A program made the translations under genes and the position numbers. Under the pieces are notes generated by a model that was not told where the DNA came from, searched no databases, and worked only from the letters and a program-made list of their open reading frames with translations. Below, piece after piece: positions 4,167-52,535 of a DNA stretch of 64,000 nucleotides. The stretch comes from Comamonas suwonensis (GTDB taxonomy: Bacteria > Pseudomonadota > Gammaproteobacteria > Burkholderiales > Burkholderiaceae_C), in contig NZ_JABBCQ020000012.1 of NCBI RefSeq assembly GCF_012844455.2, positions 1 to 64,000 on the forward strand, given 5' to 3'. Numbering within the stretch: the first letter of the stretch is position 1; each line of letters starts with the position of its first letter.

Positions 4167-4267
4167 TTGCTGCCCTGCGCGCAATAGTGCCGCCGCGCTG
4201 GATGTGAGTCTGGGCCGCATCCAGCCTGGTGGCACGGTTTAATTGATACTGGAGCGACTGGCCCGCC

Positions 4268-6115: not shown

Positions 6116-6156
6116 AGAGGCAGACCGTACCTATCCATCTTTGAAGGAGACAAACC

Positions 6157-7341
6157 GTGCACAAAGACCCCGTAGTAATCGTCAGCGCCGCCCGCACACC
6201 CATGGGCGCGTTTCAAGGTGATTTTTCTGATCTGGCCGCCCATGACCTGGGTGGCGCAGCCATCAAGGCCGCTGTAGAGCGCGCAGGTATCAAGCCTGAA
6301 CTGGTGGAGGAAGTGCTGTTTGGCAATTGTCTGATGGCAGGCCAAGGTCAGGCGCCTGCGCGCCAGGCGGGTTTCAAAGGCGGTCTCCCGCAAAGCACGG
6401 GGGCGGTAACGCTCTCCAAAATGTGCGGCGCGGGCATGGAGGCCACGCTTCTGGCTCATGATCAGCTCATTGCCGGCAGTCGTGACGTGATGGTTGCCGG
6501 TGGCATGGAAAGCATGACCAACGCGCCCTATCTGCTGAAAAAAGGTCGTGGCGGCTACCGCATGGGTCACGACAAGATCTTCGACCACATGATGCTGGAC
6601 GGCCTTGAGGATGCCTATGAAGCCGGTCGGTCCATGGGCACTTTTGGTGAAGACTGCGCTGCCAAATACAGCTTTACCCGTGAGGCCCAGGATGCCTTTG
6701 CCATCGCCAGCGTGCAGCGAGCTCAGACCGCCACAGAAAGCGGTGCGTTTGCTGCTGAAATCACGCCTGTCATCCTCAAAACCCGCAAGGGCGATGTGAC
6801 GGTGAGCGTGGATGAAGGCCCGGCCAAGGCCAAGCCCGAGAAAATTAGCGGCCTCAGGCCTGCGTTCAAAAAAGACGGCACCATCACTGCCGCCTCTAGC
6901 TCCAGCATCAACGATGGTGCGGCTGCCATGGTGCTGATGCGTGAATCCACAGCCAAGCAACTGGGTTGCAAGCCTCTGGCGCGCATCGTCTCTCACGCCT
7001 CGTTTGCGCATGCCCCTGAATGGTTCACCACGGCTCCTGTGGGAGCAACAGAGAAGGCGCTGAAGAAGGCGGGCTGGACGGTGGCTGATGTGGATCTGTG
7101 GGAAATCAATGAGGCTTTTGCCGTTGTGCCCATGGCATTGATGGCAGATTTGAAGGTGCCGCACGACAAAGTCAACGTCAACGGCGGAGCCTGCGCTCTG
7201 GGCCACCCCATCGGTGCCAGTGGTGCGCGCATTCTGGTCACCTTGATCCATGCGCTGCAGGCGCGTGGCAAGAAAAAAGGTCTGGCCACGTTGTGCATTG
7301 GCGGCGGTGAAGCCACGGCCATGGCCATTGAACTGATCTGA
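6157..7341 (+). CDS. Acetyl-CoA C-acetyltransferase (thiolase)
   Basis: A 394-residue degradative/biosynthetic thiolase. The nucleophilic Cys lies in 'LSKMCGAGMEA' (about residue 90), the catalytic His in 'GGACALGHPIGASGARI' (about residue 350) and the second Cys in 'LATLCIGGGEATA' near the C-terminus. The reaction is reversible condensation or cleavage of acetoacetyl-CoA and acetyl-CoA. Next to the liu genes it most likely clears acetoacetyl-CoA derived from HMG-CoA lyase product. Translation starts at GTG, preceded by GAAGGAGA at 6143-6150. A role in polyhydroxyalkanoate synthesis cannot be excluded from sequence. Confidence 0.93.
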   Translation: MHKDPVVIVSAARTPMGAFQGDFSDLAAHDLGGAAIKAAVERAGIKPELVEEVLFGNCLMAGQGQAPARQAGFKGGLPQSTGAVTLSKMCGAGMEATLLAHDQLIAGSRDVMVAGGMESMTNAPYLLKKGRGGYRMGHDKIFDHMMLDGLEDAYEAGRSMGTFGEDCAAKYSFTREAQDAFAIASVQRAQTATESGAFAAEITPVILKTRKGDVTVSVDEGPAKAKPEKISGLRPAFKKDGTITAASSSSINDGAAAMVLMRESTAKQLGCKPLARIVSHASFAHAPEWFTTAPVGATEKALKKAGWTVADVDLWEINEAFAVVPMALMADLKVPHDKVNVNGGACALGHPIGASGARILVTLIHALQARGKKKGLATLCIGGGEATAMAIELI

Positions 7342-7462
7342 AGAGCTCATCTGACGGTGTTTGGGTTGATCCGTCACTGGATTGCTCTACAGTGATCGCA
7401 TGTTCAACGGATTGCACGCATTCGTTTGTGAATGCGTGCAGATCATTTTGCGGAAATCACCC

Positions 7463-8575
7463 ATGAGCGCAGACCTTCCACACGAGCACAGTGACACTGA
7501 GCAGCCGCTGGCACCGCAGCAGATTGATGCCTTCTGGAGCGACTTTTCCAGTCAGCTCAGCGAGCTGGAGGCACTCGATGGTCACGAATTTGTGGAGCGC
7601 GCGAATGAAGTGCTGCAGCAATACGCGCCGGGTCTGAGTCTGGAGCTGGAAGGCAAGCTCAAGGAAGCAGGCTCCAAGCTGGTGATTTCGGCCCATGGCA
7701 ATACCACCCAGTTTGAAAATGCGCAGGCCATGGTGCGCAAAGCACCGCATTTTGAAAACTACAGCGTGCAGGCATTTCGCAGCCGCGCGCTGGGCAGCAA
7801 CTTTGGCATGCGCATGGATGGTTTCGAGCTGGCCTGCAGCGATGTGCGCGTGGGCTACTTCAATGCGGGCGGTATCACCGGGCTCAAGCTCTCGTTTGAG
7901 AAAAGCATTGCGCCAGACATGATCGAGCAAGCGCAGCACATGACTTTCATCATGCTGGATCATGTGCTGGGTGAGTGGGATTTTTCAGTGCGCGTAGGTC
8001 CCGTCGAGTTTGTCGATAAAGCGGCTGATGATGTGCAGGGCACGGCGCTGCTGTCTGACTTCCCCCCCATTTTTGATGCCTTCATTCGCAAGCAGCTGGG
8101 GCGCAGCTACGAGTTTCCGCAAGAAGATACCGACCGCTGGATTTCTCTGGAAGTCCGTGCCCATGGCGCTGCGGAGGATTCACCTCCCGATATTCTGACC
8201 TTTCACGACGGTGCCAATGCCGTGGCCACGCGTGCCGACCTGTCGCACTTTCTGGAGTGGCGCATGCGCTTTTCCAGTCAGCAAGAGTTAGACGGCGTGC
8301 GCGATGCGCAGGACGCGCTGGATGAGCAGCTCAGCAGCCAGCAGCGCGGCATTCTGGCGTTCTCGCGCATTGAAGACATGCGCTCGCGCGTCGCCACCTA
8401 CTATGTGGAAGACCCTGCCCATGCCACGCAACTGGCGCAGCAACTGGCCCAGCAGAATGCGCCGGGACTGGAGGAGCAGCTGTCGGTGATCTTTGATCCT
8501 TCGTGGAATGAATATCTGTCGCTGTACGCCGCAGTTCATCGCAATGATCGCCAGCCGGAGGACCTCGTTTCATGA
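7463..8575 (+). CDS. DUF695-like protein of unknown function
   Basis: A 370-residue soluble protein with no signal peptide or membrane segment. The segment 'LVISAHGNTTQFENAQAMVR' followed by 'APHFENYSVQAFRSR' resembles the DUF695 fold ('ISANGxxxxFxxVxxLVxxAPxLxxWxVxAFRPR'), and the mid-protein 'YFNAGGITGLKLSF' fits too. I cannot assign an enzymatic activity. I chose the ATG at 7463 because the upstream extension is Cys/Phe-rich and unlike the rest of the protein. Its stop overlaps the start of the next gene (ATGA at 8572-8575), so the two are translationally coupled. Confidence 0.75.
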   Translation: MSADLPHEHSDTEQPLAPQQIDAFWSDFSSQLSELEALDGHEFVERANEVLQQYAPGLSLELEGKLKEAGSKLVISAHGNTTQFENAQAMVRKAPHFENYSVQAFRSRALGSNFGMRMDGFELACSDVRVGYFNAGGITGLKLSFEKSIAPDMIEQAQHMTFIMLDHVLGEWDFSVRVGPVEFVDKAADDVQGTALLSDFPPIFDAFIRKQLGRSYEFPQEDTDRWISLEVRAHGAAEDSPPDILTFHDGANAVATRADLSHFLEWRMRFSSQQELDGVRDAQDALDEQLSSQQRGILAFSRIEDMRSRVATYYVEDPAHATQLAQQLAQQNAPGLEEQLSVIFDPSWNEYLSLYAAVHRNDRQPEDLVS

Positions 8576-9201
8576 TCACTTCGCGTGAGCAATTGCAGCA
8601 GCTTTATGCAGCGCCTGCGGAGCGGGCTCTGCTCAAGCAACAGTGGGAACTTGACCGTTACTGCCTGCGCTTTATCGCCCTGTCGCCATTTCTGGTTATG
8701 TCCACGGGCGGCAGCAATGGCAGTTTGCTGGATGCGTCACCCCGTGGCGGCAAGCCCGGCTTCGTCATGGCCGCAGACTCCAATACGCTGCTCATCCCCG
8801 ATGCCGGTGGCAACAACCGGCTGGATAGTCTGTGCAATCTGGTCGACGACCCACGTCTGGGGTTGCTGTTTTTTGTGCCAGGCTTTGACGAGACTCTGCG
8901 CGTCAACGGCACGGCCCAGTTGCGCGATGAAGCGCATTACACAGCGCTGTTCGCCAGTGATTACTTTCGGCCCAAGTTGGTCATTGAAGTTAATGTGAAA
9001 GAGGCTTATCTGCACTGCGCCAAGGCGCTGATGCGATCCAAGCTGTGGAGCGCCGAGGCACAGGTGTCGCGCAATGTCATGCCCTCGCTCAATCAGATCA
9101 TTCAGTCGCAGATGGGCATCACCACCGAGCCTGAAGCGCAGGATCTGATGGTCGCCCGCTACAAGGCCGTGATTGCAGCCGAGGAAATGAAAAAAATTTG
9201 A
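8572..9201 (+). CDS. PPOX-class FMN flavoprotein (pyridoxamine-phosphate-oxidase fold)
   Basis: A 209-residue split-barrel FMN-binding protein of the PPOX class, close to the MSMEG_1061-type group. 'FLVMSTGGSNGSLLDASPRGG' (residues 40-60) and 'LLIPDAGGNNRLDSLCNL' (about residues 77-94) are the typical FMN-contact strands, and 'LRVNGTAQL' follows. The substrate is unknown. It is coupled to the preceding DUF695-like gene by a 4-base overlap. Its TGA stop at 9199-9201 lies inside the TTTGATAG end of an interspersed repeat, so that element defines the C-terminus '...MKKI'. Confidence 0.85.
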   Translation: MITSREQLQQLYAAPAERALLKQQWELDRYCLRFIALSPFLVMSTGGSNGSLLDASPRGGKPGFVMAADSNTLLIPDAGGNNRLDSLCNLVDDPRLGLLFFVPGFDETLRVNGTAQLRDEAHYTALFASDYFRPKLVIEVNVKEAYLHCAKALMRSKLWSAEAQVSRNVMPSLNQIIQSQMGITTEPEAQDLMVARYKAVIAAEEMKKI

Positions 9202-9290
9202 TAGCGGCTAGCGCTTTATTCCAAAGGAATTTTTATGAAAACAGCATTGAAATCCACTTCCGATAAGCGCAAGAAGCTATGAAATCAATA
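9195..9290. repeat. Interspersed repeat family A, full-length copy
   Basis: The left arm TTTGATAGCGGCTAGCGCTT starts at 9197. The right arm is GATAAGCGCAAGAAGCTATG, whose reverse complement matches the left arm (CATAGCTTCTTGCGCTTATC). A small internal hairpin ATTCC-AAA-GGAAT lies at 9218-9230. The element fills the whole gap between the flavoprotein and SDR genes. It contributes the stop codon of the first and the start codon of the second. Confidence 0.8.
9235..9282 (+). CDS. Possible 15-residue leader peptide inside the repeat
   Basis: A short frame encoding MKTALKSTSDKRKKL sits entirely within the interspersed repeat. AAAGGAAT at 9223-9230 can act as its ribosome site. Its TGA overlaps the ATG of the SDR gene (ATGA at 9279-9282), so ribosomes finishing it could restart on the SDR. 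The SDR start has no clear ribosome site of its own, which favours coupling. There is no conservation evidence, and it may be fortuitous. Confidence 0.4.
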   Translation: MKTALKSTSDKRKKL

Positions 9291-9950
9291 CTGATCTTGG
9301 GCGCCTCACGCGGGCTGGGGCGGGCTTTGACAGAGGCTTATCTGGCACAGGGCCAGCGCGTGATTGCCACCGTGCGCAAGAGCGAAGACATGGCCCCGCT
9401 GCAAGCGCTGGGTGCACAGGTGCTGCAGGTCGATCTGGCTGACCCCGCCAGCGTCAGCGGTCTTGCCTGGCAGCTCGATGGCAAAAGCATAGCTCTCGCC
9501 CTGTATGTGGCGGGCGTGTGGGATGGTCATGCTGCTGGCGTGCCACCCACGCAGCAGCAGTTTGACCAGGTCATGCACAGCAATGTGCTGGGCTTTATGC
9601 AGGCCCTGCCGCAGATTGCACCCATGGTGCAAGAAGCTGGTGGCGTGATTGCTGCGTTCTCCAGCGAGATGTCTTTGCTCGGCAGTGCCGACGAAAGCGC
9701 ATGGTTGTACCGCGTCAGCAAGGCGGCGCTCAATATGGCGGTGGCTTCTGCCTGCCAGCAATGGCCGGGCCTGACCTTGCTGGCGCTGGACCCCGGCTGG
9801 ACGCAGACCGATATGGGCGGTCCCGGTGCCACCGTGCCTCTGGCTGAGAGTGTCCGGGGTCTGATGAATGTGCTGACTCAGGTGCAGCCAGAAGACCGTG
9901 GCAGCTTATGGCGCTACGACGGCACAAAAACAGAGCTTTTGGGTGCTTGA
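9279..9950 (+). CDS. Short-chain dehydrogenase/reductase
   Basis: A 223-residue classical SDR. The Rossmann nucleotide motif is 'LGASRGLGRAL' at residues 6-16, the catalytic Ser lies in 'IAAFSSEMSLLG', and the YxxxK dyad in 'YRVSKAALNMA' (about residue 145). It reduces or oxidises an unknown alcohol or ketone using NAD(P)H. The C-terminus 'LDPGWTQTDMGGPGA' is common to csgA/YciK-like SDRs. Its start codon lies in the right arm of the interspersed repeat and overlaps a 15-codon upstream frame. It is 46 bases from the next gene, an acyl-CoA dehydrogenase. Confidence 0.88.
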   Translation: MKSILILGASRGLGRALTEAYLAQGQRVIATVRKSEDMAPLQALGAQVLQVDLADPASVSGLAWQLDGKSIALALYVAGVWDGHAAGVPPTQQQFDQVMHSNVLGFMQALPQIAPMVQEAGGVIAAFSSEMSLLGSADESAWLYRVSKAALNMAVASACQQWPGLTLLALDPGWTQTDMGGPGATVPLAESVRGLMNVLTQVQPEDRGSLWRYDGTKTELLGA

Positions 9951-40314: not shown

Positions 40315-43300
40315 ATGACGCAAGGCCTGATTCGTATTCGTGGTGCACGCCAGCACAATCTTCGCAATCTGGACATCGATATCCGCACCGGTGAGCTGAC
40401 CGTGGTCACGGGCCCCAGTGGCTCGGGCAAGTCCAGCCTGGTGTTCGATACGCTGTACGCCGAAGGCCAGCGCCGCTATGTAGAGACCTTTTCGGCCTAT
40501 GCGCGCCAGTTTCTGGATCGCATGGACAAACCTGCGGTGGACAAGGTCGAAGGCGTCCCCCCCGCGATTGCGATTGACCAGACCAATCCCGTGCGTAACT
40601 CCCGCTCTACCGTGGGAACGATGACGGAGATCAACGACCACCTCAAGCTGCTGTTTGCGCGTGCTGGCAGTCTGTTTGACCGAGAGACGGCATTGCCCGT
40701 CAGCCACGATACGGCAGACACTATTTATGCCGCTCTGGCGCAGCGCTGTGAAGCAGCGGGCGACCCGCGTATTGCCATCACCTTTCCGGTCGAGTTGCCA
40801 GCCAATACAACCGCAGAAGAAGTAGAGCAATGGCTGTCTGCCAGCGGCTTTACCAAGGTTCAGGCTGAGCGTGAGGTCGAGCGTGCTTTGCCAGCTGGTG
40901 AAGACGTTCCCGCCAAGAGCAAGAAGACCAAAGCGGCACCTGAAAAAATCAAGGTGCTGGACGTGATTGCTGATCGTTTTCGCCTCAGCAAGGCGGAGCG
41001 TGTGCGAGCCATGGAAGCCATTGAAGTCGGCCTCAAGCGTGGCAGTGGCCGTCTCACGGTCTATGTGCTGCCTGAAAGTGGTGCCGAGGCTGAGCCTGAG
41101 CTGTGGAAATTCTCGCAAGGCCTGCATTGCCCCGAAAGCAATCTGACCTACCTGCAGCCCATTCCCTCGCTGTTCTCCTTCAACTCTGCGGTGGGCGCCT
41201 GTGATGCCTGCCGTGGATTTGGCCGCGTGATTGGGGTGGACTGGGGGTTGGTGATCCCTAACGACAAGCTCACGCTGCGCACGGGGGCCATCAAGCCGAT
41301 TCAGACCCCTGCGTGGAAGGAAATTCAGGATGACCTGATGCGCCACTCCGAGGCCGAAGGCATTCCGCGCGATACCGCTTGGGCCAAGCTGACCCAAGAA
41401 CAAAAAGACTGGGTGATCGAAGGCTCACCCAACTGGAACGGCAAATGGAGCCAGACCTGGTACGGCATTCGCCGCTACTTCGAGTATCTGGAAAGCAAGG
41501 CCTACAAGATGCATATCCGGGTGCTGCTGTCCAAGTACCGCAGCTACACCGAATGCCCCACTTGCGGCGGCGCACGCCTCAAGACCGAGAGCTTGCTCTG
41601 GCGCATCGGTGGCAAGCAGGCTGCCGACGCTGTGCTTCCCGTCCATGATGCCAGTGGCCGATACCAGCGCTTTATGCCGCAGGGCGTGAACTGGAGCCGT
41701 GAGCAACTGGAAGGTCTGCCCGGCCTGTGCCTTCATGATCTGATGCGACTGCCTATTACGCGGCTGCGCGAATTCTTTGCTCAGTTGGCACCAAGCGCCG
41801 ATGCCGATAAGAACGATGGCGAGGCGCAGGCGCTCAAAATGCTGCACGCAGAAGTGATGACGCGCCTGCAGTATCTGTGCGATGTGGGCATTGGCTATCT
41901 CACGCTAGACCGTCAGAGCCGCACGCTGAGCGGCGGTGAGGTGCAGCGTATCAACCTGACCACGGCGCTGGGCACCTCGCTGGTCAACACGCTGTTTGTG
42001 CTCGATGAACCATCGATTGGCCTGCACCCACGTGATATGGAACGCATTACCGAAGCCATGCAGCGCCTGCGCGATGCGGGCAACACGCTGGTGGTGGTGG
42101 AACATGACCCGGCCGTCATGTTTGCCGCTGACCGGGTGATCGACATGGGCCCCGGCCCGGGTGCGCGCGGTGGCAATATCGTGTTTGATGGAACACCCGA
42201 TGAGCTGCGCACTGCCGATACCTTGACCGGTGCCTATATGGGGGGGCGCAAGCAAGTCGGTTTCGGGCTCAAGCGCATGGTGCTTGATTTCACGCCGCGC
42301 CTGATTCTGGAGGGTGCGCGCGAGCACAACTTGCAAGACATCAGCGTGGACTTTCCGCTGCAGCGTCTGGTGACGATTACTGGCGTTTCAGGCTCGGGCA
42401 AATCCACGCTGATTCAGGATGTGCTGGTGCCCGCACTGATGCGCCACTTTGGCAAACCCACCGATGCGGCGGGTGCATTTGACCGCCTGCTGGGTGCTGA
42501 TCATCTGGCCGATGTGATGTTTGTGGATCAGTCGCCCATTGGCAAGACGGCGCGCTCCAACCCGGTCAGCTATGTGGGGGCCTGGGATGCGCTGCGCGAG
42601 CTGTTTGCCGTGGCACCGCTGTCGCGCCAGCGCGGTTACACCGCGTCCAAGTTCAGCTTCAACAGCGGCGACGGGCGTTGCCCGACCTGCGGCGGCTCAG
42701 GCTTTGAGCATGTGGAGATGCAGTTTCTCTCGGATGTGTATCTGCGCTGCCCGGACTGCAATGGCACACGTTATCGCCCCGAAATTCTGGAAGTGACAAT
42801 CGAGCGCAATGGCCAGCTCTTGAATGTGGCCGATGTGCTGGATTTGACGGTCGCCGAAGCGGCCTTGCGGTTCTCTCAAGACCGCGATGTGATTCGTGCG
42901 CTGCAGCCCATTGTTGATGTGGGGCTGGAATACGTGAAGCTGGGCCAGCCCGTGCCGACCTTGTCGGGTGGTGAAGCCCAGCGTTTGAAGCTGGCCGGCT
43001 TTCTGGCCGAGGCTGCCAAGGCACAGTCCAAAAGCAAGCAGTCGCTGGCCAAAAAAGGCACGCTGTTCCTGTTTGACGAGCCCACCACGGGCCTGCACTT
43101 TGAAGACATTGCCAAGCTCATGCGTGCGCTGCGCAAACTGCTTGAAGCCGGACATTCGCTGATCGTCATCGAGCACAACCTGGACGTAATTCGCGCCAGC
43201 GACTGGCTGATTGATCTGGGCCCCGAAGGCGGCGATGGCGGCGGTCTGATCGTGGCCCAGGGGACGCCTGAAGATGTGCGCCATGTGAAGGCCTCGCACA

Positions 43301-46263
43301 CGGCACAGGCTCTGCGCGAATACGACCTGGCCATGGGTGTGGGCGGCGAGGCGGTGCGCGAAGTCGCACCCATGCTCTATAAACCGGAGCGCAGAGCCAA
43401 GGCGGCACAAGCGCCACAGGCCAAAAATGCGATTGAAATCGTCAACGCCAAAGAGCACAACCTCAAGTCGTTGAGCGTGGATGTGCCGCGTGGCAAGTTC
43501 AATGTGGTGACGGGTGTTTCCGGCTCGGGCAAGTCCACGCTGGCCTTCGATATTCTGTTCAACGAAGGCCAGCGCCGCTATCTCGAATCGCTCAATGCCT
43601 ATGCACGCTCCATTGTCCAGCCCGCAGGCCGGCCCGAAGTGGATGCGGTGTATGGCATTCCGCCCACGGTGGCGATTGAGCAGCGCCTGTCTCGCGGCGG
43701 GCGCAAGTCCACGGTGGGAACGACCACCGAGGTCTGGCATTTCTTGCGACTGCTCTACGTCAAGCTGGGCATTCAGCACTGTATTCACGACGATGCCATC
43801 GTGCAGCCGCAAACCGAGGAAAGCATTGCCGCGCAGCTGATGACGAACTTCCGCGGCCAGACCATTGGCCTGCTGGCCCCGCTGGTCGTCAACCGCAAGG
43901 GCGTCTACACCGAGCTGGCCGACTGGGCGCGACCCAAGGGCTACACCCATCTGCGGGTGGATGGCGAGTTTCTGCCGACCACGGGTTTCCCGCGCATTGA
44001 TCGCTTCAAGGAACACACGATCGAGCTTCCCGTGGCCAGCGTGACGGTGACTGCGGCCACTGAGAAAGAGTTGCGCGGCCATCTGCGTCAGGCGCTGGAG
44101 ATTGGCAAGGGCGTGCTGCATGTGCTGTCAGGCCTGGAAAATCTGGCCGATGCCATGCAGGGCGGGCAGAGCACGGCAGGCATTGGTGCGCTGCAGGTGT
44201 TCTCTACCCAGCGCGCCTGCCCGGTTTGCGCCACCAGCTATGGCGAGCTGGACCCGCGTCTGTTCTCGTACAACAGCAAGCATGGCTGGTGCCCTGACTG
44301 TGTGGGCACGGGCGTGAAGCTGACCAAGGATCAGCGCAAGGTCTATGACGATACCTTGATGGCCGAAGACAACCGGGGCCGCGAGGTGAAATTTGAAGGC
44401 CAGGAAGTGGAAGATCTGGCCGAAGTGGCCTGTCCCAAATGCCTTGGCACGCGACTGAATCCCACGGCGCGGGCCGTGAGATTTCACCATGTTGGCATTA
44501 CCGATGTGGCGCAGCTCTCGGTGACCGATGTGCGTCGCTGGGTGCAGCAGCTGGCGCTGTCGGGTCGTGAAAGCGATATTGCACGCGACCTGATTCCCGA
44601 GATCCAGAGTCGTCTGGAGTTCCTTGAGGAAGTCGGCCTCAACTATCTGACGCTGGACCGTGGTGCGCCTACGCTCAGTGGTGGCGAGGCGCAGCGTATC
44701 CGCCTTGCCGCGCAACTGGGCAGCAATCTGCAGGGCGTCTGCTATGTGCTGGATGAGCCCACGATTGGCCTGCATGCACGCGACAACCAGATCCTGCTCA
44801 ACGCCCTGCACAAGCTCGGCGACAAGGGCAATACGCTGGTGGTGGTGGAGCATGACGAGGACACGATTCGCCGTGCCGATCACATCATCGATATCGGACC
44901 CAGTGCCGGTATTCGTGGCGGTCGTCTGGTCGCTCAAGGCTCGGTTCAGGACATCATGGCGGCCGAGGATTCCGTCACCGGCCGCTACCTGCTGCATGCC
45001 ATGCGTCACCCCTTCAAGCCACGCCTGTGGGTGGGCGAGGGCGTGCCTCCCGCAGCACCGGCGGCAGAGTCGCCTGCTATCAATGCAGAAGCTACTAGCG
45101 CTGTTGATGTAGCGGTTGCAGAGATAAAACCATCTAAAACCAAGAAAAAGAAAGCGGCAGCAGCTACTGAAAATGTAGTGGCTGAGGACAGCAATGCACT
45201 GCACTGGCTCAGCGTGCTGGGCGCTCATCTGCACAACCTGCAGCACGTGGATGCCCGCGTTCCGCTCAAGCGCCTGGTGGCGGTGACGGGCGTTTCTGGC
45301 TCGGGCAAGTCCACGCTGGCGCGCGATGTGCTGCTGACCAATGTGGCGGCCTGGGTGCAGCAGCGATCGACCAAGGCGGGGCGCGATGCCATGGATGCAG
45401 GGCAGGCGCCCAAGCTGGTCGGCTGCAAGGGCATCAAGGGCTTTGAAACGGTAGACCGGGTGCTGGAAGTCGATCAGACACCGATTGGCAAAACGCCGCG
45501 CTCCTGCCCGGCCACCTATATCGGCTTCTGGGACACGATTCGCAAGCTGTTTGCCGAAACGCTGGAAGCCAAGGCGCGCGGCTATGCGGCCGGGCGCTTC
45601 AGTTTCAACACCGGCGAAGGCCGCTGCCCGGCTTGCGAAGGCCAGGGCGTGCGCACCATCGAAATGAGCTTTTTGCCCGATGTGAAAGTGGCTTGCGAGG
45701 TTTGCCACGGCGCGCGCTTCAACCCCGAAACACTGGCCGTGACCTGGCGCGGCAAGAACATCGGCGATGTGCTGCAGATGGAGGTCGATGCGGCGGTGGA
45801 GTTCTTTGCTGCCATGCCTTCCATTGCGCACCCGCTGCAGCTGCTCAAGGATGTGGGGCTGGGTTATCTCACGCTGGGCCAGCCATCGCCTACGCTGAGC
45901 GGTGGCGAGGCCCAGCGTATCAAGCTGGTGACCGAGCTGACCAAGGTGCGTGATGAAGTCGGCCGCCGGGGCCAGAAGGCACCGCATACGCTGTATGTGC
46001 TGGATGAGCCCACAGTGGGCCTGCACATGGCGGATGTGGACAAGCTTATCCACGTGCTGCACCGCCTGGTGGATGGTGGCCATAGCGTCATCGTCATCGA
46101 GCATGACCTGGACGTAATTGCCGAGGCGGACTGGATCATTGATCTGGGCCCCGAAGGCGGCAATGATGGCGGCCGCATCGTGGCGGAGGGTACGCCAGAG
46201 GAGCTGGTCAGGATCGGTACCCACACAGGCAAGGCATTGGCGCCGGTTCTGGCACGGCAGTGA
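40315..46263 (+). CDS. uvrA: Double-length UvrA-like protein (fused tandem UvrA)
   Basis: A 1982-residue protein equal to two complete UvrA units in one chain; ordinary UvrA has about 940-970 residues. Four ABC modules are visible. Walker A motifs lie near residues 33 (GPSGSGKS), 690, 1064 and 1659 (GVSGSGKS each), and LSGGE signatures near 539, 883, 1454 and 1861. In the second half the UvrB-binding region ('LAPLVVNRKGVYTELADWA', 'LRVDGEF') and the CxxC...CxxC zinc module ('CPVCATSYGELDPRLFSYNS', 'CPDC') are canonical. In the first half the corresponding module starts 'HCPES' and has lost a Cys. An Ala/Lys-rich linker (about residues 1575-1640) in the second half contains repeat-A sequence. 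It probably binds damaged DNA; whether it acts in normal excision repair or a side role is open. Confidence 0.93.
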   Translation: MTQGLIRIRGARQHNLRNLDIDIRTGELTVVTGPSGSGKSSLVFDTLYAEGQRRYVETFSAYARQFLDRMDKPAVDKVEGVPPAIAIDQTNPVRNSRSTVGTMTEINDHLKLLFARAGSLFDRETALPVSHDTADTIYAALAQRCEAAGDPRIAITFPVELPANTTAEEVEQWLSASGFTKVQAEREVERALPAGEDVPAKSKKTKAAPEKIKVLDVIADRFRLSKAERVRAMEAIEVGLKRGSGRLTVYVLPESGAEAEPELWKFSQGLHCPESNLTYLQPIPSLFSFNSAVGACDACRGFGRVIGVDWGLVIPNDKLTLRTGAIKPIQTPAWKEIQDDLMRHSEAEGIPRDTAWAKLTQEQKDWVIEGSPNWNGKWSQTWYGIRRYFEYLESKAYKMHIRVLLSKYRSYTECPTCGGARLKTESLLWRIGGKQAADAVLPVHDASGRYQRFMPQGVNWSREQLEGLPGLCLHDLMRLPITRLREFFAQLAPSADADKNDGEAQALKMLHAEVMTRLQYLCDVGIGYLTLDRQSRTLSGGEVQRINLTTALGTSLVNTLFVLDEPSIGLHPRDMERITEAMQRLRDAGNTLVVVEHDPAVMFAADRVIDMGPGPGARGGNIVFDGTPDELRTADTLTGAYMGGRKQVGFGLKRMVLDFTPRLILEGAREHNLQDISVDFPLQRLVTITGVSGSGKSTLIQDVLVPALMRHFGKPTDAAGAFDRLLGADHLADVMFVDQSPIGKTARSNPVSYVGAWDALRELFAVAPLSRQRGYTASKFSFNSGDGRCPTCGGSGFEHVEMQFLSDVYLRCPDCNGTRYRPEILEVTIERNGQLLNVADVLDLTVAEAALRFSQDRDVIRALQPIVDVGLEYVKLGQPVPTLSGGEAQRLKLAGFLAEAAKAQSKSKQSLAKKGTLFLFDEPTTGLHFEDIAKLMRALRKLLEAGHSLIVIEHNLDVIRASDWLIDLGPEGGDGGGLIVAQGTPEDVRHVKASHTAQALREYDLAMGVGGEAVREVAPMLYKPERRAKAAQAPQAKNAIEIVNAKEHNLKSLSVDVPRGKFNVVTGVSGSGKSTLAFDILFNEGQRRYLESLNAYARSIVQPAGRPEVDAVYGIPPTVAIEQRLSRGGRKSTVGTTTEVWHFLRLLYVKLGIQHCIHDDAIVQPQTEESIAAQLMTNFRGQTIGLLAPLVVNRKGVYTELADWARPKGYTHLRVDGEFLPTTGFPRIDRFKEHTIELPVASVTVTAATEKELRGHLRQALEIGKGVLHVLSGLENLADAMQGGQSTAGIGALQVFSTQRACPVCATSYGELDPRLFSYNSKHGWCPDCVGTGVKLTKDQRKVYDDTLMAEDNRGREVKFEGQEVEDLAEVACPKCLGTRLNPTARAVRFHHVGITDVAQLSVTDVRRWVQQLALSGRESDIARDLIPEIQSRLEFLEEVGLNYLTLDRGAPTLSGGEAQRIRLAAQLGSNLQGVCYVLDEPTIGLHARDNQILLNALHKLGDKGNTLVVVEHDEDTIRRADHIIDIGPSAGIRGGRLVAQGSVQDIMAAEDSVTGRYLLHAMRHPFKPRLWVGEGVPPAAPAAESPAINAEATSAVDVAVAEIKPSKTKKKKAAAATENVVAEDSNALHWLSVLGAHLHNLQHVDARVPLKRLVAVTGVSGSGKSTLARDVLLTNVAAWVQQRSTKAGRDAMDAGQAPKLVGCKGIKGFETVDRVLEVDQTPIGKTPRSCPATYIGFWDTIRKLFAETLEAKARGYAAGRFSFNTGEGRCPACEGQGVRTIEMSFLPDVKVACEVCHGARFNPETLAVTWRGKNIGDVLQMEVDAAVEFFAAMPSIAHPLQLLKDVGLGYLTLGQPSPTLSGGEAQRIKLVTELTKVRDEVGRRGQKAPHTLYVLDEPTVGLHMADVDKLIHVLHRLVDGGHSVIVIEHDLDVIAEADWIIDLGPEGGNDGGRIVAEGTPEELVRIGTHTGKALAPVLARQ
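45070..45130 (-). repeat. Repeat family A fragment inside uvrA
   Basis: The plus strand contains CTGCTATCAATGCAGAAGCT followed by ACTAGCGCT and TAGCGGTTGCAGAG, which resembles the repeat arms in reverse. It encodes 'AINAEATSAVDVAVAEIK', part of the low-complexity linker ahead of the fourth ABC module, and is more A/T-rich than the surrounding gene. Confidence 0.55.
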
Positions 46264-46339
46264 TGCCATAAAAATATTGCGCAAGGGTTGAAGCACTACA
46301 CAGAAACTCCACGCTGCTCCGAATAATCAGCGTGGAGAA

Positions 46340-49300
46340 ATGAGTGGCACCACGGTGTCCGGGTGCGCGGTTGCATCCGGGGTTGCTGCTGAACCCATGT
46401 CTGAAACGGTTGTCTTGCGCGGGCCTGAAAGGCCGGACTTGCTGCGCCATGAGGTGCTGGCGGATATTTTTGAAACAACGGCAGCTGCCCATCCTGAGCA
46501 GATTGCGCTGATGGAGGGGCAGGGCGATCAGCTGCGGCAACGCAACTATGCCCAGCTGGATGCAGAGGCCAGCCTTGCAGCCCACCGGCTGATCGAGGCC
46601 GGCATACGCCCCGGCGACATGGTGGGCCTGTGGCTGCCACGCGGCATCGAGCTGCTGACCCTGCAACTGGCCATTGCCAAGACCGGGGCCGCCTGGCTGC
46701 CCTTTGATGCTGAAACCCCGCTGGAGCGCATTGCGACCTGCCTTGAAGATGCACAGGCCAAGGCACTATTGATTGCGCAGCAGCATACGCAAGCAGTACA
46801 AGCGCAACAGAGTATTACGGCGCAGATATTTTCAGAAGTGGATCTGCTGACGGCATTGCCCGAAGGCGTTGATCTGTGCCGCCGTGAGGGCGCATTGCCC
46901 AGTCACCCGGCCTATGTGATCTACACCAGCGGCTCCACGGGCAAGCCCAAAGGCATTGCCATCACGCAGGGCAGCATCTGCCATTTTTTGCGCAGCGAGA
47001 ATGCGCGCCTGGGCGTGCGCCAGAGCGACAAGGTTTACCAAGGTTTCTCGGTGGCCTTTGACATGTCGTTTGAGGAAATCTGGATCAGCTATCTGGTGGG
47101 GGCCACCCTGTGGCTGGCCCCGCGCGAGATTGCTGGCGATCCCGAAGCTCTGCCCGCTGCGCTGATTGCGCAGCAGGTCACGGTGCTGCATGCCGTGCCC
47201 ACGCTGCTGGCGCTGTTCGCGCAGGACGTGCCCAGTCTGCGCCTCATCAATCTGGGCGGCGAGATGTGCCCTGAAACACTGGTGGCGCGCTGGGCCAATG
47301 CGTCCCGCCAGATGTTCAACACCTACGGGCCTACCGAGGCCACGGTGTCGGCCAGTCTGGCCGAACTCAAGGCAGGCGAGCCCGTGACCATTGGCTCCCC
47401 CCTGCCCAATTACGCCATGCTGGTGGTGCAGGTGATTGAGTCGGATAGCTTTCCCGCAGGCACGGCCCCCGCGCTGCATGGCTTGCCGCAGGGCGAGGTG
47501 GGCGAGCTGTGCATTACCGGCCCCGGCGTAGCCACAGGCTATCTGGGTCGGCCAGAGCTGACGGCCGAGAAATTTCTGCACAACCCCTGGGCCAACGGGC
47601 CGCAGGACGAGCGGCTTTACCGCACGGGTGATCTGGCTCGCATTGATGAGCAGGGGCAGATTCACTGCCTGGGCCGGGCCGATGATCAGGTCAAGATTCG
47701 TGGCTTTCGGGTGGAGCTGGGCGAGATTGAAGCCGTGCTGGCGCAGCAACCGGGCGTGGGCACCACGGCGGTGCTGCTGCGCCAGGATGACGGCATGGAT
47801 CAACTGGTGGCCTTTTACGTGCCCAGCGATGAGCCGCCCACGCCATCAGCGCTGCGCAGCGCGCTGGCCGAGCGGCTGCCGCCTTATATGGTGCCCGCGC
47901 GCTTTGATGCCTTGAGAGAGATGCCGCGTCTGACATCGGGCAAGATCGACCGCAAGGCGCTCAAGGCCATGCAGCTGTCTGCCGTGGTGGACTTGTCTGA
48001 CTCCGATACACCGGAGACTCTAGCTGAAGAGGTGCTGTTTGCCGCACTGGCGCAACTTTTCCCCGGGCAGCCCGTGCGCCGGGGGCTGGATTTTTTCAGC
48101 GATCTGGGCGGACACTCGCTGTTTGCTGCACGGCTGATTTCGCAGCTGCGTGCTGACCCGCGCTTTGCGCAGGCGACCGTGAGCACGATTTATCAGCAGC
48201 GCAAAATCGGTTTGATTGCCGAGGCCTTGCAGGCGGTCATGTCGGTGGGCGATGCTGCGGCGCAGGAGCGCCCTTTTCGCATTCACTCCGCGTGGCGGCG
48301 CTGGCGCTGCGGGGCGGCCCAGGCGCTGGTAATTCCGCTGCTGGTGCTGATCAAGATGGCGCAGTGGCTGGCGCCATTTTTTACCTACCATTTCTTCACC
48401 GGCGATGAGATGGACTCCGTGCCTTTTGCCGTCGAGATGTCGGTGCTGGCATTTGCCATTGCCACGCTGGCCGAATTCGCCATCGCCTGGGCCGGAAAGT
48501 GGCTGATCGCAGGGCGATTGAAGCCGGGCCGCTACCCGCTGTGGGGCTTGACGTATTTCCGCTGGTGGCTGGCTGACAGGCTGGTGGATGCCGTGCCGCT
48601 GGCCATGATCACCGGCTCATCACTGCACCCGGTGTGGCTGCGCATGCTGGGCGCGAAGGTGGGGCATGAGTGCAATCTGGGCTCGATGACGGTGCGTGCC
48701 CCTGACCTGTTGCGCATCGGTGATGGCGCAAGCATTGGTAATGCGGTCAGCCTGGAAAATGCCCGCGTTGAAGGTGGAGAGCTGGTGCTGGGCCGTATCG
48801 ACATAGGCGATGAAGTCTGCATTGGCTCGTATGTGGTGATTGAAGGCAATACGCGACTGGAGGACTGGGCGCATCTGGAAGGCCAGTCCGCACTGGCCGA
48901 TGGCACGGTGCTGTCTGCGCGCAGTGTGTGGGCGGGGTCGCCTGCGCGAGAAGTCGGTCGCTTCGATCCTGCCAGTCTGCAGCCGCGCCACCTGGTGGGC
49001 CGTTTGCGCAAGGCGGCCGAAATGCTGGCTTATCTGACGGGTGGTCTTCTGGTTGCCACGCTTTTCTTCATGCCGGTGTTCCCGACCTTCATGCTGATCG
49101 ACATTCTGGATATTGAAGAAATTTCGGTCAGGCCGTTGCTGGAGCAAGGCATTGTCGATGCGGGCGGAGCCTTTGTGCTGCGCCTGATCAAGTTCTTCTT
49201 GCTGGCTCTTCCTGCCAGTGCGGTGCTGGTGGCCTGCACGGTGCTGGTAGCGGCACTGGTGCGCTATCTGTTTTTGCCACGCACCAAGGCAGGCACCTGG

Positions 49301-50470
49301 TCCATTCACAGTCGCCGCTATCTGGGTAAATGGATGGTTAACCAGATTCAGGAGGCCAGCCTGAGCACGTTGCATGGCATTTATGCCACGGTGTATTCAT
49401 CGACCTGGTACCGGCTGCTGGGTGCCAAGGTGGGCAAGCAGACGGAGCTATCCACCGCATTGGGCGTGGTACCCGACATGCTGACGCTGGGCGACGAATG
49501 CTTTGTGGCCGATGCGGTGATGCTGGGCGATGAGCATATCGACGGCGGCTGGATGACGGTCAAGCCCACGGTTGTTTCGCGCCGCAGTTTCATTGGCAAT
49601 GGGGCTTATGTGCCGGATGGCTCGACCATTCCTGAAAACGTGCTCGTCGGCGTGATGACGGCCGTGCCGCGCAATGCCGATATGCAGAGCGGCGATACCT
49701 GGCTGGGATCGCCCGCCATCAACCTGCCTGCGCGCGAAGTGGCTCAAGGCTACCCGGAGCACCTGACGTTTGCACCGTCGCTGTGGCGGCGCGTGGGGCG
49801 CGGGCTGGTGGAAGCCTTCCGCATCGCCGTGCCCCATGCACTGGTGATTGCCGTGGGTTACGCCGTGGTGCTGGATGCCATGCCGCTGGCCTCTGCCGAC
49901 CGCTGGGGTGCAGTGGTGCTGGACTTGGCCATTTCAGGTGTGATCTTTGGCATGGTGGTCTTTGTGCTGGTGGCGCTCTTCAAATGGCTGGCCGTGCGCC
50001 GCTACAGCAAGACAGCCGTGCCCATGTGGACGCCGTTTGTCTGGCTCTCTGAAGCGGTTACCAATCTGTATGAAGGCCTGGCGGTTCCCAACTTCCTGCG
50101 CTATCTGCGCGGCACGCCCTGGCTGCCGCTGGCGCTGAACCTGATGGGTAGCCGCATTGCCTCCAGTGCCTGGCTTGATACCACGGACATCACGGAGCAC
50201 GACTGTGTGCAGATCGGCGAACACAGCGAACTCAATGCACTTTGCTGCCCGCAGACGCATCTGTTTGAGGATCGAGTGATGAAGATCGACCAGGTGCTCA
50301 TAGGCAGCCGCGTGACCATGGGTGCCCGCTGCACGGTGTTGTATGGCGCAACGGTGGGCGACGGCGTGCAGTTGGGGCCGTTGACGCTGGTGATGAAGGG
50401 CGAGGCTTTGCCTGCGGCCACGCACTGGCACGGCGCGCCTGCATCGCCCGTGCCGCTCAAGGTGGCATAG
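46340..50470 (+). CDS. Pls/PosA-like membrane nonribosomal peptide synthetase (A-T-TM-LbH)
   Basis: A 1376-residue single-module synthetase. The adenylation domain (about 40-545) has A3 'TSGSTGKPKG' (196-205), A4 'FDMSFE' (240-245), A5 'NTYGPTE' (327-333), A7 'YRTGDL' (427-432) and the A10 Lys535 in 'TSGKIDRK'. The carrier domain has Ser593 in 'LGGHSL'. The C-terminal half has three repeats, each a pair of membrane helices (about 660-720, 895-980, 1162-1218) followed by a left-handed beta-helix-like domain (about 765-870, 1020-1125, 1265-1370). There is no classical condensation or thioesterase domain. By family knowledge this is the epsilon-polylysine synthetase (Pls) layout, making amino-acid homopolymers or amides. 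My manual specificity residues are D-M-E-H-I-L-T-V-S-K. The start is uncertain (46397 is an alternative). Confidence 0.9.
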   Translation: MSGTTVSGCAVASGVAAEPMSETVVLRGPERPDLLRHEVLADIFETTAAAHPEQIALMEGQGDQLRQRNYAQLDAEASLAAHRLIEAGIRPGDMVGLWLPRGIELLTLQLAIAKTGAAWLPFDAETPLERIATCLEDAQAKALLIAQQHTQAVQAQQSITAQIFSEVDLLTALPEGVDLCRREGALPSHPAYVIYTSGSTGKPKGIAITQGSICHFLRSENARLGVRQSDKVYQGFSVAFDMSFEEIWISYLVGATLWLAPREIAGDPEALPAALIAQQVTVLHAVPTLLALFAQDVPSLRLINLGGEMCPETLVARWANASRQMFNTYGPTEATVSASLAELKAGEPVTIGSPLPNYAMLVVQVIESDSFPAGTAPALHGLPQGEVGELCITGPGVATGYLGRPELTAEKFLHNPWANGPQDERLYRTGDLARIDEQGQIHCLGRADDQVKIRGFRVELGEIEAVLAQQPGVGTTAVLLRQDDGMDQLVAFYVPSDEPPTPSALRSALAERLPPYMVPARFDALREMPRLTSGKIDRKALKAMQLSAVVDLSDSDTPETLAEEVLFAALAQLFPGQPVRRGLDFFSDLGGHSLFAARLISQLRADPRFAQATVSTIYQQRKIGLIAEALQAVMSVGDAAAQERPFRIHSAWRRWRCGAAQALVIPLLVLIKMAQWLAPFFTYHFFTGDEMDSVPFAVEMSVLAFAIATLAEFAIAWAGKWLIAGRLKPGRYPLWGLTYFRWWLADRLVDAVPLAMITGSSLHPVWLRMLGAKVGHECNLGSMTVRAPDLLRIGDGASIGNAVSLENARVEGGELVLGRIDIGDEVCIGSYVVIEGNTRLEDWAHLEGQSALADGTVLSARSVWAGSPAREVGRFDPASLQPRHLVGRLRKAAEMLAYLTGGLLVATLFFMPVFPTFMLIDILDIEEISVRPLLEQGIVDAGGAFVLRLIKFFLLALPASAVLVACTVLVAALVRYLFLPRTKAGTWSIHSRRYLGKWMVNQIQEASLSTLHGIYATVYSSTWYRLLGAKVGKQTELSTALGVVPDMLTLGDECFVADAVMLGDEHIDGGWMTVKPTVVSRRSFIGNGAYVPDGSTIPENVLVGVMTAVPRNADMQSGDTWLGSPAINLPAREVAQGYPEHLTFAPSLWRRVGRGLVEAFRIAVPHALVIAVGYAVVLDAMPLASADRWGAVVLDLAISGVIFGMVVFVLVALFKWLAVRRYSKTAVPMWTPFVWLSEAVTNLYEGLAVPNFLRYLRGTPWLPLALNLMGSRIASSAWLDTTDITEHDCVQIGEHSELNALCCPQTHLFEDRVMKIDQVLIGSRVTMGARCTVLYGATVGDGVQLGPLTLVMKGEALPAATHWHGAPASPVPLKVA
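46781..46834 (-). repeat. Possible repeat family A fragment in the synthetase gene
   Basis: The minus strand reads AAAATATCTGCGCCGTAATA and GCGCTTGTACTGCTTGCG, spaced as in the repeat. It encodes a Gln/Ala-rich stretch 'AQQHTQAVQAQQSITAQ' in a variable loop of the adenylation domain. Weak match. Confidence 0.35.
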
Positions 50471-50474
50471 GCCG

Positions 50475-51062
50475 GTGCAGGTTCAGCACTGCGTTGTGGA
50501 GGGCGGGGCACTGCAGGGTGTCCCGCAGTTGCGGCTGTTGCAGGGCTTGAGTCATGACAGAGAGTCGGCGCGATTTCAGGCCCGCGTGGCCTTGCGAAGT
50601 TGTCTGGCCCGGGAACTGGCTTGCCCTGAAGCTGCCTTGCACATCAGCAATCAGCGTAATGAGGCTCCGCAACTGTGGCTGCATGGCGAGAGGCTGTCAC
50701 AGCCCTTTTGCTCCATCAGTCATACGCCGGGGCTGGCTCTGCTGGCATGGCATGACGGCGGGTCGGTGGGCGTCGATATTCAGGCAGTGAACGAAGGAGT
50801 GTCGCGCCATGAATTACGGGCAGTGGCTCAGATTTTTCTAGCGCCAAATACGGCTCAAGCGCTTGATGGTATTGCGCTAGATGCTCTGTTTTTCAAAGCC
50901 TTTGCAAGCGCCTGGGCCGCGCAGGAAGCTCGTTTGAAATGCGCGGGTGTGGGCCTGGTGGAGTGGAGCGTCAAACTCGAAGCCTCTCTGGCATGTCTGC
51001 ATTGCACACCCGTGGCACTGGCGGATGGCTATGCAGCCGCTGTTGCATGGCATCTGCGTTAA
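50475..51062 (+). CDS. 4'-Phosphopantetheinyl transferase (Sfp superfamily)
   Basis: A 195-residue PPTase superfamily protein that would convert the carrier domain of the adjacent synthetase from apo to holo form using CoA. 'FCSISHTPGLALLAWHDGG' and 'VGVDIQAVNEG' (about residues 93-103) are the metal-binding region, and 'AWAAQEARLKCAG' corresponds to the WxxKEAxxK motif. The usual Glu of 'GVDIE' is Gln, and the first Lys of 'KEA' is also Gln. The first change is tolerated in some family members. It starts 4 bases after the synthetase stop. Its middle part is encoded by a repeat-A half-element. Confidence 0.85.
   Translation: MQVQHCVVEGGALQGVPQLRLLQGLSHDRESARFQARVALRSCLARELACPEAALHISNQRNEAPQLWLHGERLSQPFCSISHTPGLALLAWHDGGSVGVDIQAVNEGVSRHELRAVAQIFLAPNTAQALDGIALDALFFKAFASAWAAQEARLKCAGVGLVEWSVKLEASLACLHCTPVALADGYAAAVAWHLR
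50831..50898 (-). repeat. Repeat family A half-element inside the PPTase gene
   Basis: The minus strand reads CAGAGCATCTAGCGCAATAC and ATCAAGCGCTTGAGCCGTAT, then GGCGCTAGAAAAATC, the typical half-element arms. It encodes 'IFLAPNTAQALDGIALDALF' just before the catalytic W/QEA helix. Confidence 0.6.
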
Positions 51063-51194
51063 GACTATGTAGATCACTGAATCCAGCCGCCGCGCCTGGG
51101 GTGAATGCTCAGAACCGTCTCATGGTTTTCGCCTGCATGAGAAGCAGCGCATTTTGCGAAGTCCGGGCAGCTTTTCCACTTCCGCAAGCACCAT

Positions 51195-51230
51195 GAAAAA
51201 GGGCTGCCAATCTTTCGATTGGGCAGCCCT
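51195..51230 (-). terminator. Intrinsic terminator of the TRAP transporter operon
   Basis: AAGGGCTGCC-AAT and ATTGGGCAGCCCTT form a long stem with one bulge, followed on the minus strand by five T. It lies 18 bases past the large-permease stop. Confidence 0.88.
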
Positions 51231-51248
51231 TGATTCAAGTCTTGGCGA

Positions 51249-52535
51249 TTACTGGAAGCCCAGCATATGCGGCAACCAGGTGGAGAGTTGCGGAATGAAG
51301 GTCAGCATGCACAGCACGACAAAGTGCGCCAGCAGGAACAGAGGCATCTCTCGCGTCAGGTCGGTAATCGAGACGCGCGTGGCGACCGAGGTCACAAACA
51401 GCAGGCCACCCACGGGCGGCGTGATCATGCCCAGCGTGAGGTTGACGATCACCACCATGGCAAAGTGCGTGGGATCAATGCCAAGGCTGAAAGCGATGGG
51501 GGCCAGGATGGGCACCAGAATCATCACGCCCGGCAGCGGCTCCATGAAGATGCCGAAGACCAGCAGCAAGATGTTCACCGCGACCAGGAACATCACGGGG
51601 GACAGCTCCCAGCTAACGATCAGCTCGGATAGGTATTGCGGAATGCCTTCCACCGTCAGCACCCAGGCAAAGGCAGCCGAAGTCGCCATCACCAGCAGCA
51701 CGGATGCGGTGAGCATGGCCGAGCGCGCCAGAATGCCGGGCAGGGCCGACCATTGCAGCGTGCGGTAAATCCATTTGCCGCAGACCAGCGCATAGAACAC
51801 GGCCACCACCGAGGCTTCGGTGGGTGTGAAGATGCCGAAGCGGATACCTACCACGATGAGCACGATCAGCATCAATGCCGGAATGGCCTTGAAGCTGTTG
51901 ACCCACATTTCGCGAGCCGAAGGGCGGGGATCGGTTGAACGATAGTCGCGCTTTTTGCAGACCCACCAGTTGACGGCGGCCATGGCCAGCGCAATCAAAA
52001 TGCCGGGGATGAAACCGGCCATGAACAGACCGCCCACCGATACATTTTCATCTTGCAGCGCATAGATGATCATGCTGACGGAAGGCGGAATGATGGGGCC
52101 GACGATGGCAGTGCTGGCGGTCAGTGCCGCAGCATAAGGGCGGCTGTAGCCGGCCTTGTCCATCATCTTGACCATCATGGAGCCGGGGCCGGCCGCATCG
52201 GCCAGGGCGGAGCCGGAGATGCCCGAGAACAGCGTGAGCGACATGACGTTGGCATAGCCGAGGCCGCCCCGCAGATGACCTACGAACTGTGCCGCAAAGC
52301 GCAGCAGAACATGTGTGAGTGCACCGCCTGACATCAGCTCGGCGGCCAAAATGAAGAAGGGAACGGCCATCAGCGGAAAGCTGTCGATGCCGGTGAACAT
52401 TTCCTTGAAGACGATGAGCTGGGGATAGCGCCCGCCTACGAAGACTGCCAGAGCGGCCGAGATGGCCAGCGCAAAAGCCACCGGAAAGCCCAGCACCAGC
52501 AGGACGATGATGGCAATAAATAAAGTGATACCCAT
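51249..52535 (-). CDS. TRAP transporter large permease (DctM)
   Basis: A 428-residue membrane protein with about 12 hydrophobic segments. It starts 'MGITLFIAIIVLLVLGFPVAFALAIS' (TM1) and contains the DctM signatures 'MTLFSGISGSALADAAGPGSMMVKMMDKAGY'-like residues (about 118-150) and 'AALTASTAIVGPIIPPSVSMIIYA'. It forms the translocation channel of a sodium-driven tripartite ATP-independent transporter for a carboxylate or related acid. It is the third gene of a dctP-dctQ-dctM type operon read on the minus strand, 21 bases after the small permease. Confidence 0.95.
   Translation of the reverse strand: MGITLFIAIIVLLVLGFPVAFALAISAALAVFVGGRYPQLIVFKEMFTGIDSFPLMAVPFFILAAELMSGGALTHVLLRFAAQFVGHLRGGLGYANVMSLTLFSGISGSALADAAGPGSMMVKMMDKAGYSRPYAAALTASTAIVGPIIPPSVSMIIYALQDENVSVGGLFMAGFIPGILIALAMAAVNWWVCKKRDYRSTDPRPSAREMWVNSFKAIPALMLIVLIVVGIRFGIFTPTEASVVAVFYALVCGKWIYRTLQWSALPGILARSAMLTASVLLVMATSAAFAWVLTVEGIPQYLSELIVSWELSPVMFLVAVNILLLVFGIFMEPLPGVMILVPILAPIAFSLGIDPTHFAMVVIVNLTLGMITPPVGGLLFVTSVATRVSITDLTREMPLFLLAHFVVLCMLTFIPQLSTWLPHMLGFQ

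What the first reader, a model, noticed from the sequence alone, without database searches (positions are those of the whole stretch)
46340..51062. Membrane Pls/PosA-like synthetase with dedicated PPTase: candidate producer of an unknown amino-acid polymer or amide
One chain combines an adenylation domain, a carrier domain and three tandem 'membrane pair + beta-helix' units, with no condensation or thioesterase domain. A phosphopantetheinyl transferase starts four bases later. This is the architecture of epsilon-polylysine synthetase (family knowledge). My manual reading of the specificity pocket is D-M-E-H-I-L-T-V-S-K (D241, M242, E245, H284, I303, L305, T328, V336, S337, K535). The Glu at position 3 would suit a basic side chain, but this code is not one I can match. 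No exporter, regulator or resistance gene is adjacent.
Basis: partly seen in the sequence, partly recalled or inferred. Interest (0 to 1): 0.85.

Follow-up and report, generated by a model that had tools for sequence, protein, structure and literature searches.

The report
Comamonas poly-ornithine synthetase with its PPTase
This looks like the Comamonas relative of a known bacterial enzyme (PosA) that links ornithine units into a short positively charged polymer, so the product is predictable rather than unknown; the less familiar part is that in this genus it travels with its own small activating enzyme.

Summary
The gene pair is real: an A-T-membrane synthetase (46340-50470; better start 46397) and, four bases on, an Sfp-fold PPTase (50475-51062). 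The terminal domain scores 766 bits on the Pls/PosA model (cut-off 423) and models as three helix-pair plus beta-helix units. The 'unmatched' code is an error: positions 5 and 6 were read one residue early (I303/L305 for N304/G306). Corrected, the code is DMEHNGTVSK, identical to that published for PosA, the delta-poly-L-ornithine synthetase of Acinetobacter baumannii; an EntF control supports the register. The A core is 62% identical to PosA, the chain about 52%; a tree without the pocket columns puts both in one clade (support 99) whose 32 rows all carry DMEHNG[TS]VSK. Best reading: a PosA orthologue, a new member of a known kind. Additions: all 26 genomes of the genus with the synthetase carry the adjacent PPTase, and none was found in the 27 others; invariant polar residues concentrate in the third unit, suggesting one active site. 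Activity and product are inferred, not shown.

The parts
46340..50470 (+). Pls/PosA-family synthetase, 1376 aa from the first ATG (residue numbers in this report count from here)
   Evidence: 51.7% identical over 98% of its length to A. baumannii proteins, one of which has an A core identical to PosA 8G95 (L172)
46397..46399 (+). more likely start codon (M20, MSETVVLRGPERPDLL); protein then 1357 aa
   Evidence: ATG shared by the 16 relatives read; only 1 of them (L009) keeps the first ATG with its peptide
46469..47944 (+). adenylation domain (residues 44-535)
   Evidence: Pfam AMP-binding and AMP-binding_C; 240 of 387 residues identical to 8G95
47060..47944 (+). substrate pocket D241 M242 E245 H284 N304 G306 T328 V336 S337 K535 = DMEHNGTVSK
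   Evidence: register with PosA 8G95, EntF control
47249..47257 (+).
48116..48118 (+). Ser593 of the carrier motif LGGHSL, predicted 4'-phosphopantetheine site
   Evidence: sequence and alignment of 19 members
48317..50443 (+). terminal polymerisation domain TIGR02353 (residues 660-1368)
   Evidence: AlphaFold2 model of residues 630-1376, pLDDT 90.5, pTM 0.90
48290..48991 (+). unit 1: helix pair (651-685, 694-724) and beta-helix
   Evidence: 10 invariant residues of which 1 polar among 19 members
48992..49756 (+). unit 2: helices near 888-908 and 941-978 and beta-helix
   Evidence: 11 invariant, 3 polar
49757..50467 (+). unit 3: helix pair (1148-1185, 1189-1219) and beta-helix; proposed active site among E1286, Q1305, H1307, E1310, K1315, Y1335, K1353, E1355
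   Evidence: 20 invariant, 10 polar
50475..51062 (+). Sfp-type 4'-phosphopantetheinyl transferase, 195 aa, GTG start
   Evidence: Pfam ACPS; model pLDDT 95.9; Foldseek to Sfp 1QR0 and human AASDHPPT; D101, W147, E151, K155 invariant in the 31 rows of A3

Best explanation
[quoted passage not shown] Proposed steps: the PPTase loads 4'-phosphopantetheine on Ser593; the A domain adenylates L-ornithine (D241 to the alpha-amine; E245, T328 and S337 to the delta-amine; M242 limiting chain length) and loads it on the carrier; the membrane-embedded terminal domain, probably through one active site in its third beta-helix unit, joins units through the delta-amine to give a short cationic polymer. Shown here: domains, pocket letters, kinship, PPTase fold and co-occurrence. 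Inferred from PosA biochemistry: substrate, linkage and product. Inferred only: the single active site in unit 3, the exclusive role of the PPTase, and any export through the membrane domain.
For: Pocket identical in 10 of 10 positions to the code published for PosA, including the residues shown there to contact or limit the substrate (PMC10522769; register; control; the tenth letter checked on L172). A core 240 of 387 identical to 8G95; full chain 51.7% to A. baumannii proteins; one of them, L172, has an A core identical to 8G95 and a terminal domain 49% identical to the window's. One clade with PosA at SH-aLRT 99, pocket columns removed. Of the 80 best named relatives 77 carry DMEHNGTVSK and 3 DMEHNGSVSK. 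Members with other codes fall elsewhere in the tree, among them a Streptomyces protein beside a diaminobutyrate transaminase and an aspartate kinase, code DFECLSAVTK. Terminal domain over the family cut-off with the expected fold. PPTase fold; PPTase adjacent in 26 of 26 synthetase-bearing genomes of the genus.
Against: No biochemistry was found for this protein. In the searches made here PosA is the only member of the clade with a shown product, and its polymer was made in vitro; a posA deletion in A. baumannii gave only slightly more biofilm. Identity of pocket letters does not exclude a second-shell effect at 38% A-core divergence. PosA also takes D-ornithine (about half the efficiency) and weakly lysine. 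One distant row outside the clade (L169) has nearly the same code, DMEHNGTVTK, so letters alone do not prove kinship. In A. baumannii posA is a single-gene operon with no PPTase annotated within about 4 kb, so the pair is not the PosA arrangement.
Confidence: 0.83

Rival explanations
1. Same enzyme class, but the polymer is of another diamino acid (2,4-diaminobutyrate, lysine or diaminopropionate).
For: Glu at position 3 suits any basic side chain; PosA shows modest activity with L-Lys and low with Dab.
Against: Position 2 is Met as in PosA; the paper reports Ala in lysine enzymes and Phe in Dap/Dab enzymes. The Phe-coded members, one of them beside Dab-supply genes, branch elsewhere.
Confidence: 0.1
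2. The enzyme makes not a homopolymer but a short capped amide or an ornithine conjugate, released or anchored in the envelope.
For: No thioesterase domain reported; the nearest folds are hexapeptide acetyltransferases; the product of this protein has not been seen.
Against: PosA, with the same domains, makes 7-12-mers in vitro. In the few loci whose neighbours I scanned (window, L041, L043, L033, L032) no third gene recurs between the two Comamonas contexts.
Confidence: 0.05
3. One reading: an unknown polymer set by a new code DMEHILTVSK.
For: The letters I303 and L305 are there, and the first extraction with these columns showed them conserved in the clade.
Against: They are not the pocket positions. 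PosA itself has I and L at the same two columns, and an EntF equivalog reads DVWHVCLVDK instead of DVWHFSLVDK with those columns.
Confidence: 0.02

Closest known systems
PosA, delta-poly-L-ornithine synthetase of Acinetobacter baumannii (PDB 8G95-8G98; PMC10522769)
   Same: A-T-terminal-domain order, 10 of 10 pocket residues, 62% A-core and about 52% full-length identity, no co-transcribed exporter or regulator seen
   Different: posA stands alone; here a PPTase follows and is co-inherited within the genus
epsilon-poly-L-lysine synthetase Pls (PDB 7WEW)
   Same: same architecture (from PMC10522769)
   Different: lysine enzymes have Ala at position 2 (from PMC10522769); weaker A-domain match here (263.6 bits against 506.5 for 8G95)
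Dap/Dab polymer synthetases (Phe at position 2), likely example Streptomyces L174 beside Dab-supply genes
   Same: family and domain order
   Different: code DFECLSAVTK or other DFE codes, separate part of the tree, own precursor genes
Sfp-type PPTases (1QR0, 4MRT; human AASDHPPT 2C43)
   Same: fold, and Asp, Glu and Lys of the active site kept (their roles recalled)
   Different: 16-19% identity; Gln at the place of Sfp's third acidic metal ligand and of the Lys of its WxxKE motif (Sfp residues recalled, not from a call)

Membership tests
Pls/PosA (CHPA synthetases) | TIGR02353 terminal domain over its curated cut-off | tested here: met
   765.9 against 423.1 bits
Pls/PosA (CHPA synthetases) | one adenylation and one carrier domain, no classical condensation or thioesterase domain | tested here: met
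   carrier motif seen in alignment, carrier not scored by PF00550 at E 0.001
Pls/PosA (CHPA synthetases) | three pairs of membrane helices with three beta-helix segments | tested here: met
   model of residues 630-1376, pLDDT 90.5; hydropathy peaks in each unit. Membrane insertion itself not tested
PosA (delta-poly-L-ornithine synthetase) | substrate code DMEHNGTVSK | tested here: met
PosA (delta-poly-L-ornithine synthetase) | common clade with PosA | tested here: met
   32-row clade, SH-aLRT 99, pocket columns removed, 59 rows chosen by me, quick tree
PosA (delta-poly-L-ornithine synthetase) | activates L-ornithine best and makes delta-linked 7-12-mers | not testable with these tools
   needs enzyme assay and LC/MS
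epsilon-poly-L-lysine synthetase | Ala at code position 2 (feature from PMC10522769) | tested here: not met
   Met242
Sfp-type PPTase | Sfp fold and conserved Asp/Glu/Lys | tested here: met
Sfp-type PPTase | transfers phosphopantetheine to this carrier domain | not testable with these tools
   needs assay

The most novel reading that the evidence does not exclude
A two-gene cassette in which a diverged Sfp-type PPTase serves only this synthetase, and in which the pseudo-threefold membrane domain polymerises ornithine at one active site in its third beta-helix while the other two beta-helices have lost catalytic residues, with the domain itself passing the polymer out of the cell. That would give a mechanism for the uncharacterised polymerisation domain of this family.
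Probability: 0.2. Interest if true: 0.65.

Novelty: new member of a known kind. Interest (0 to 1): 0.35.

Why it matters
It turns an 'unknown polymer' into a testable prediction (delta-poly-L-ornithine in Comamonas and relatives in Burkholderiales and some Pseudomonas), shows how a one-residue misregistration makes a false new code, and points to residues in the third beta-helix unit for testing the unexplained condensation step of the family. [quoted passage not shown]

Tried and rejected
Unknown-code reading: rejected after register with 8G95 and an EntF control. I also at first took the best PDB hit 8G95 ('Dimodular nonribosomal peptide synthase') for a glycine enzyme from memory; the paper shows it is PosA. 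RNA element or hairpin before the gene: Rfam gave no match at gathering scores over 45900-51500; an inverted repeat near 46312-46337, seen by eye, lies in a stretch that is alike only in the nearest relatives (L009, L010, partly L016); not pursued. Promoter scan found none, mean 1.1 in shuffles: no information. Solved relatives of the terminal domain by sequence: only weak gamma-carbonic-anhydrase-type beta-helices; by fold, hexapeptide acetyltransferases and gamma carbonic anhydrases, which support the fold and not a mechanism. An attempt to print the 7WEW (Pls) alignment through a homologue failed because other chains ranked first, so the Pls residue is taken from the paper.

Rows dropped or chosen: L061 had no A-domain motif; L103 was left out of the PPTase profile because the ORF taken was in a wrong frame; L145 and L147 (duplicates) left out; L013 and L022 gave no upstream match. 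The 59 rows, the 19, the 37 of A2 and the 31 of A3 are choices of mine from those at hand. Literature: Comamonas with 'poly-lysine synthetase' and with 'poly-L-lysine' and 'nonribosomal peptide synthetase' gave 0 papers; ornithine-polymer searches listed only the PosA paper as relevant by title and abstract. Only open-licence PMC full text was searched. Of all papers listed I opened one, PMC10522769 (Results and Discussion sections); its supplement, which lists further homologues, was not readable here, so Comamonas may already be named there.

Full report
What is there. The window is contig 3 of a 4.7 Mb genome. The genus is Comamonas: a same-genus genome (G017) has its hit on a contig of the same length as the Comamonas testosteroni JL40 contig found by name. 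The ORF 46340-50470 (+) encodes 1376 aa and the ORF 50475-51062 (+) 195 aa, four bases apart. Pfam and NCBIfam give an adenylation domain and a Pls/PosA terminal domain at 765.9 bits (cut-off 423.1); no condensation or thioesterase family is among Pfam's four matches. The carrier motif is FSDLGGHSL. It is the only Pls/PosA terminal domain over the cut-off in its genome. The upstream neighbour is a double-length UvrA and the downstream neighbour a convergent TRAP importer.

Start codon. I tried 18 relatives and could read 16. All 16 have an ATG that corresponds to window 46397, followed by a shared MS..(V)LRGPER. Only L009 keeps the window's first ATG with its peptide; the others have a stop, lack the ATG or are unlike there.

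The code. HMMER aligns the window without gaps through this stretch to 8G95: window LRLINLGGEMCP, PosA LRIINLGGEMCP. The paper names D217, M218, E221, H260, N280, T304 and S313 and prints the code as D M E H N G T V S K; counting on from H260, N280 is the Asn of INLGGE, that is N304 in the window, and the sixth letter is G306. With these columns the window reads DMEHNGTVSK. [quoted passage not shown]

Kinship. The A core is identical to 8G95 in 240 of 387 aligned residues. A. baumannii records hold proteins 51.7% identical over 98% of the query; the one fetched (L172) has an A core identical to 8G95 over 387 residues and a terminal domain 49% identical to the window's. In a quick tree of 59 A cores with the pocket columns left out, window and PosA fall in one 32-row clade (SH-aLRT 99) in which every row carries DMEHNG[TS]VSK. 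The DLED and DFE codes form their own groups with less support (86 and 94); the three DAES rows do not form one group; one distant row (L169) carries DMEHNGTVTK outside the clade. Of 98 rows, 85 carry DMEHNGTVSK, 4 DMEHNGSVSK and 9 are distant members or other NRPS; the 80 best named relatives are all in the first two groups (77 and 3). That set was kept by similarity (80 of 568), so it shows constancy in the clade, not in the family.

Distribution. In the genus 25 of 53 genomes have the terminal domain over the cut-off and one more (G015) has the gene in pieces. The clade includes Comamonadaceae, Oxalobacteraceae, Alcaligenaceae, Azonexaceae, Sphaerotilaceae and some Pseudomonas. Within Comamonas the pair sits between uvrA and the TRAP genes in the window's group; in a second group at about 79% identity no uvrA or TRAP match was found around it, so the two genes are what is kept.

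The PPTase. Pfam is weak (27.8 bits), but the AlphaFold2 model (pLDDT 95.9) matches Sfp (E 6.3e-8) and human AASDHPPT. In the 31 rows of A3, R29, R33, A91, G99, D101, W147, E151, A152, K155 and E163 are invariant, besides M1. A profile of this group finds a strong match (157-213 bits) in 26 of 53 genomes of the genus, the same 26 that hold the synthetase, each next to it (in G015 and G046 next to the end piece of the synthetase on its contig); among the 27 others, 5 have only weak matches of 45-70 bits and 22 none (compared). The first look scored at most 59 candidates a genome and some genomes are incomplete, so absence is not proof. Two of the 26 matches were flagged with an in-frame stop; read directly, one has it next to the C-terminal end and the other is open over the 200 codons read. 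In the own genome Pfam's ACPS model finds only this protein and one AcpS-like match. Among the 80 named loci 60 have the PPTase within the fetched flank on the same strand; 2 of the other 20 end at the contig edge, 18 lack it there. The profile was built partly from these loci. In four of the 60 (L072, L073, L074, L076) the PPTase lies 1.3-1.7 kb further down; the gene between is a phospholipase A1 in the two tested, L072 and L073. So outside Comamonas the link is common but not universal. In A. baumannii none is annotated near posA. A distant alphaproteobacterial member has a GNAT gene and then a PPTase in the same place.

The polymerisation domain. The model of residues 630-1376 (37 sequences, pLDDT 90.5, pTM 0.90) has three helix-pair plus beta-helix units, as PMC10522769 reported for PosA from its own modelling. 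Foldseek finds hexapeptide acetyltransferases and gamma carbonic anhydrases. In 19 members chosen down to Streptomyces, Rhodococcus and Aureimonas proteins, 41 positions from residue 650 on are invariant: 10 in unit 1, 11 in unit 2, 20 in unit 3; of the polar ones (D, E, H, K, R, N, Q, S, T, Y, C) 1, 3 and 10. Unit borders were set by me from the model. I infer one active site in unit 3 around H1307. This is a hypothesis from conservation alone.

Verdict. A PosA orthologue with a co-inherited PPTase: a new member of a known kind. Activity, product, linkage and role are unproven for this protein.

Noticed in passing
window 40315-46263 (+): UvrA of 1982 aa, about twice the usual length (recalled), with two UvrA interaction domains, directly upstream; 76 bases separate its stop from the first ATG of the synthetase.
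   Followed up: partly
L041 4265-6891: In a second Comamonas group the pair lies about 0.2 kb downstream of an HlyD-type membrane-fusion gene and an outer-membrane efflux gene on the same strand; a possible exporter that the window's locus lacks. Another locus of that group (L043) did not show it directly upstream.
   Followed up: partly
L072 (Ottowia sp. GY511) 8078-9466 and L073 (MAG) 8172-9413: A phospholipase A1 gene sits between synthetase and PPTase.
   Followed up: no
L174 (Streptomyces sp. NBC_01527 plasmid) 2917-9240: Pls/PosA-family gene with code DFECLSAVTK followed by a diaminobutyrate transaminase and an aspartate kinase: a likely poly-diaminobutyrate cassette on a linear plasmid.
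   Followed up: partly
L052, L148-L161, L173, L177: A sister group, mostly outside the window's class, with codes DLED[IL]G[TS]VVK, the type that PMC10522769 lists as a unique signature of unknown product.
   Followed up: no
L169: A distant member outside the PosA clade with the nearly identical code DMEHNGTVTK, possibly convergent.
   Followed up: no
window 50763-50972: The PPTase has GVDIQ and WAAQEARLK where Sfp-type enzymes usually have an acidic third metal ligand and WxxKE (recalled); the relatives aligned also lack these two residues while Asp101, Glu151 and Lys155 are kept in A3.
   Followed up: partly
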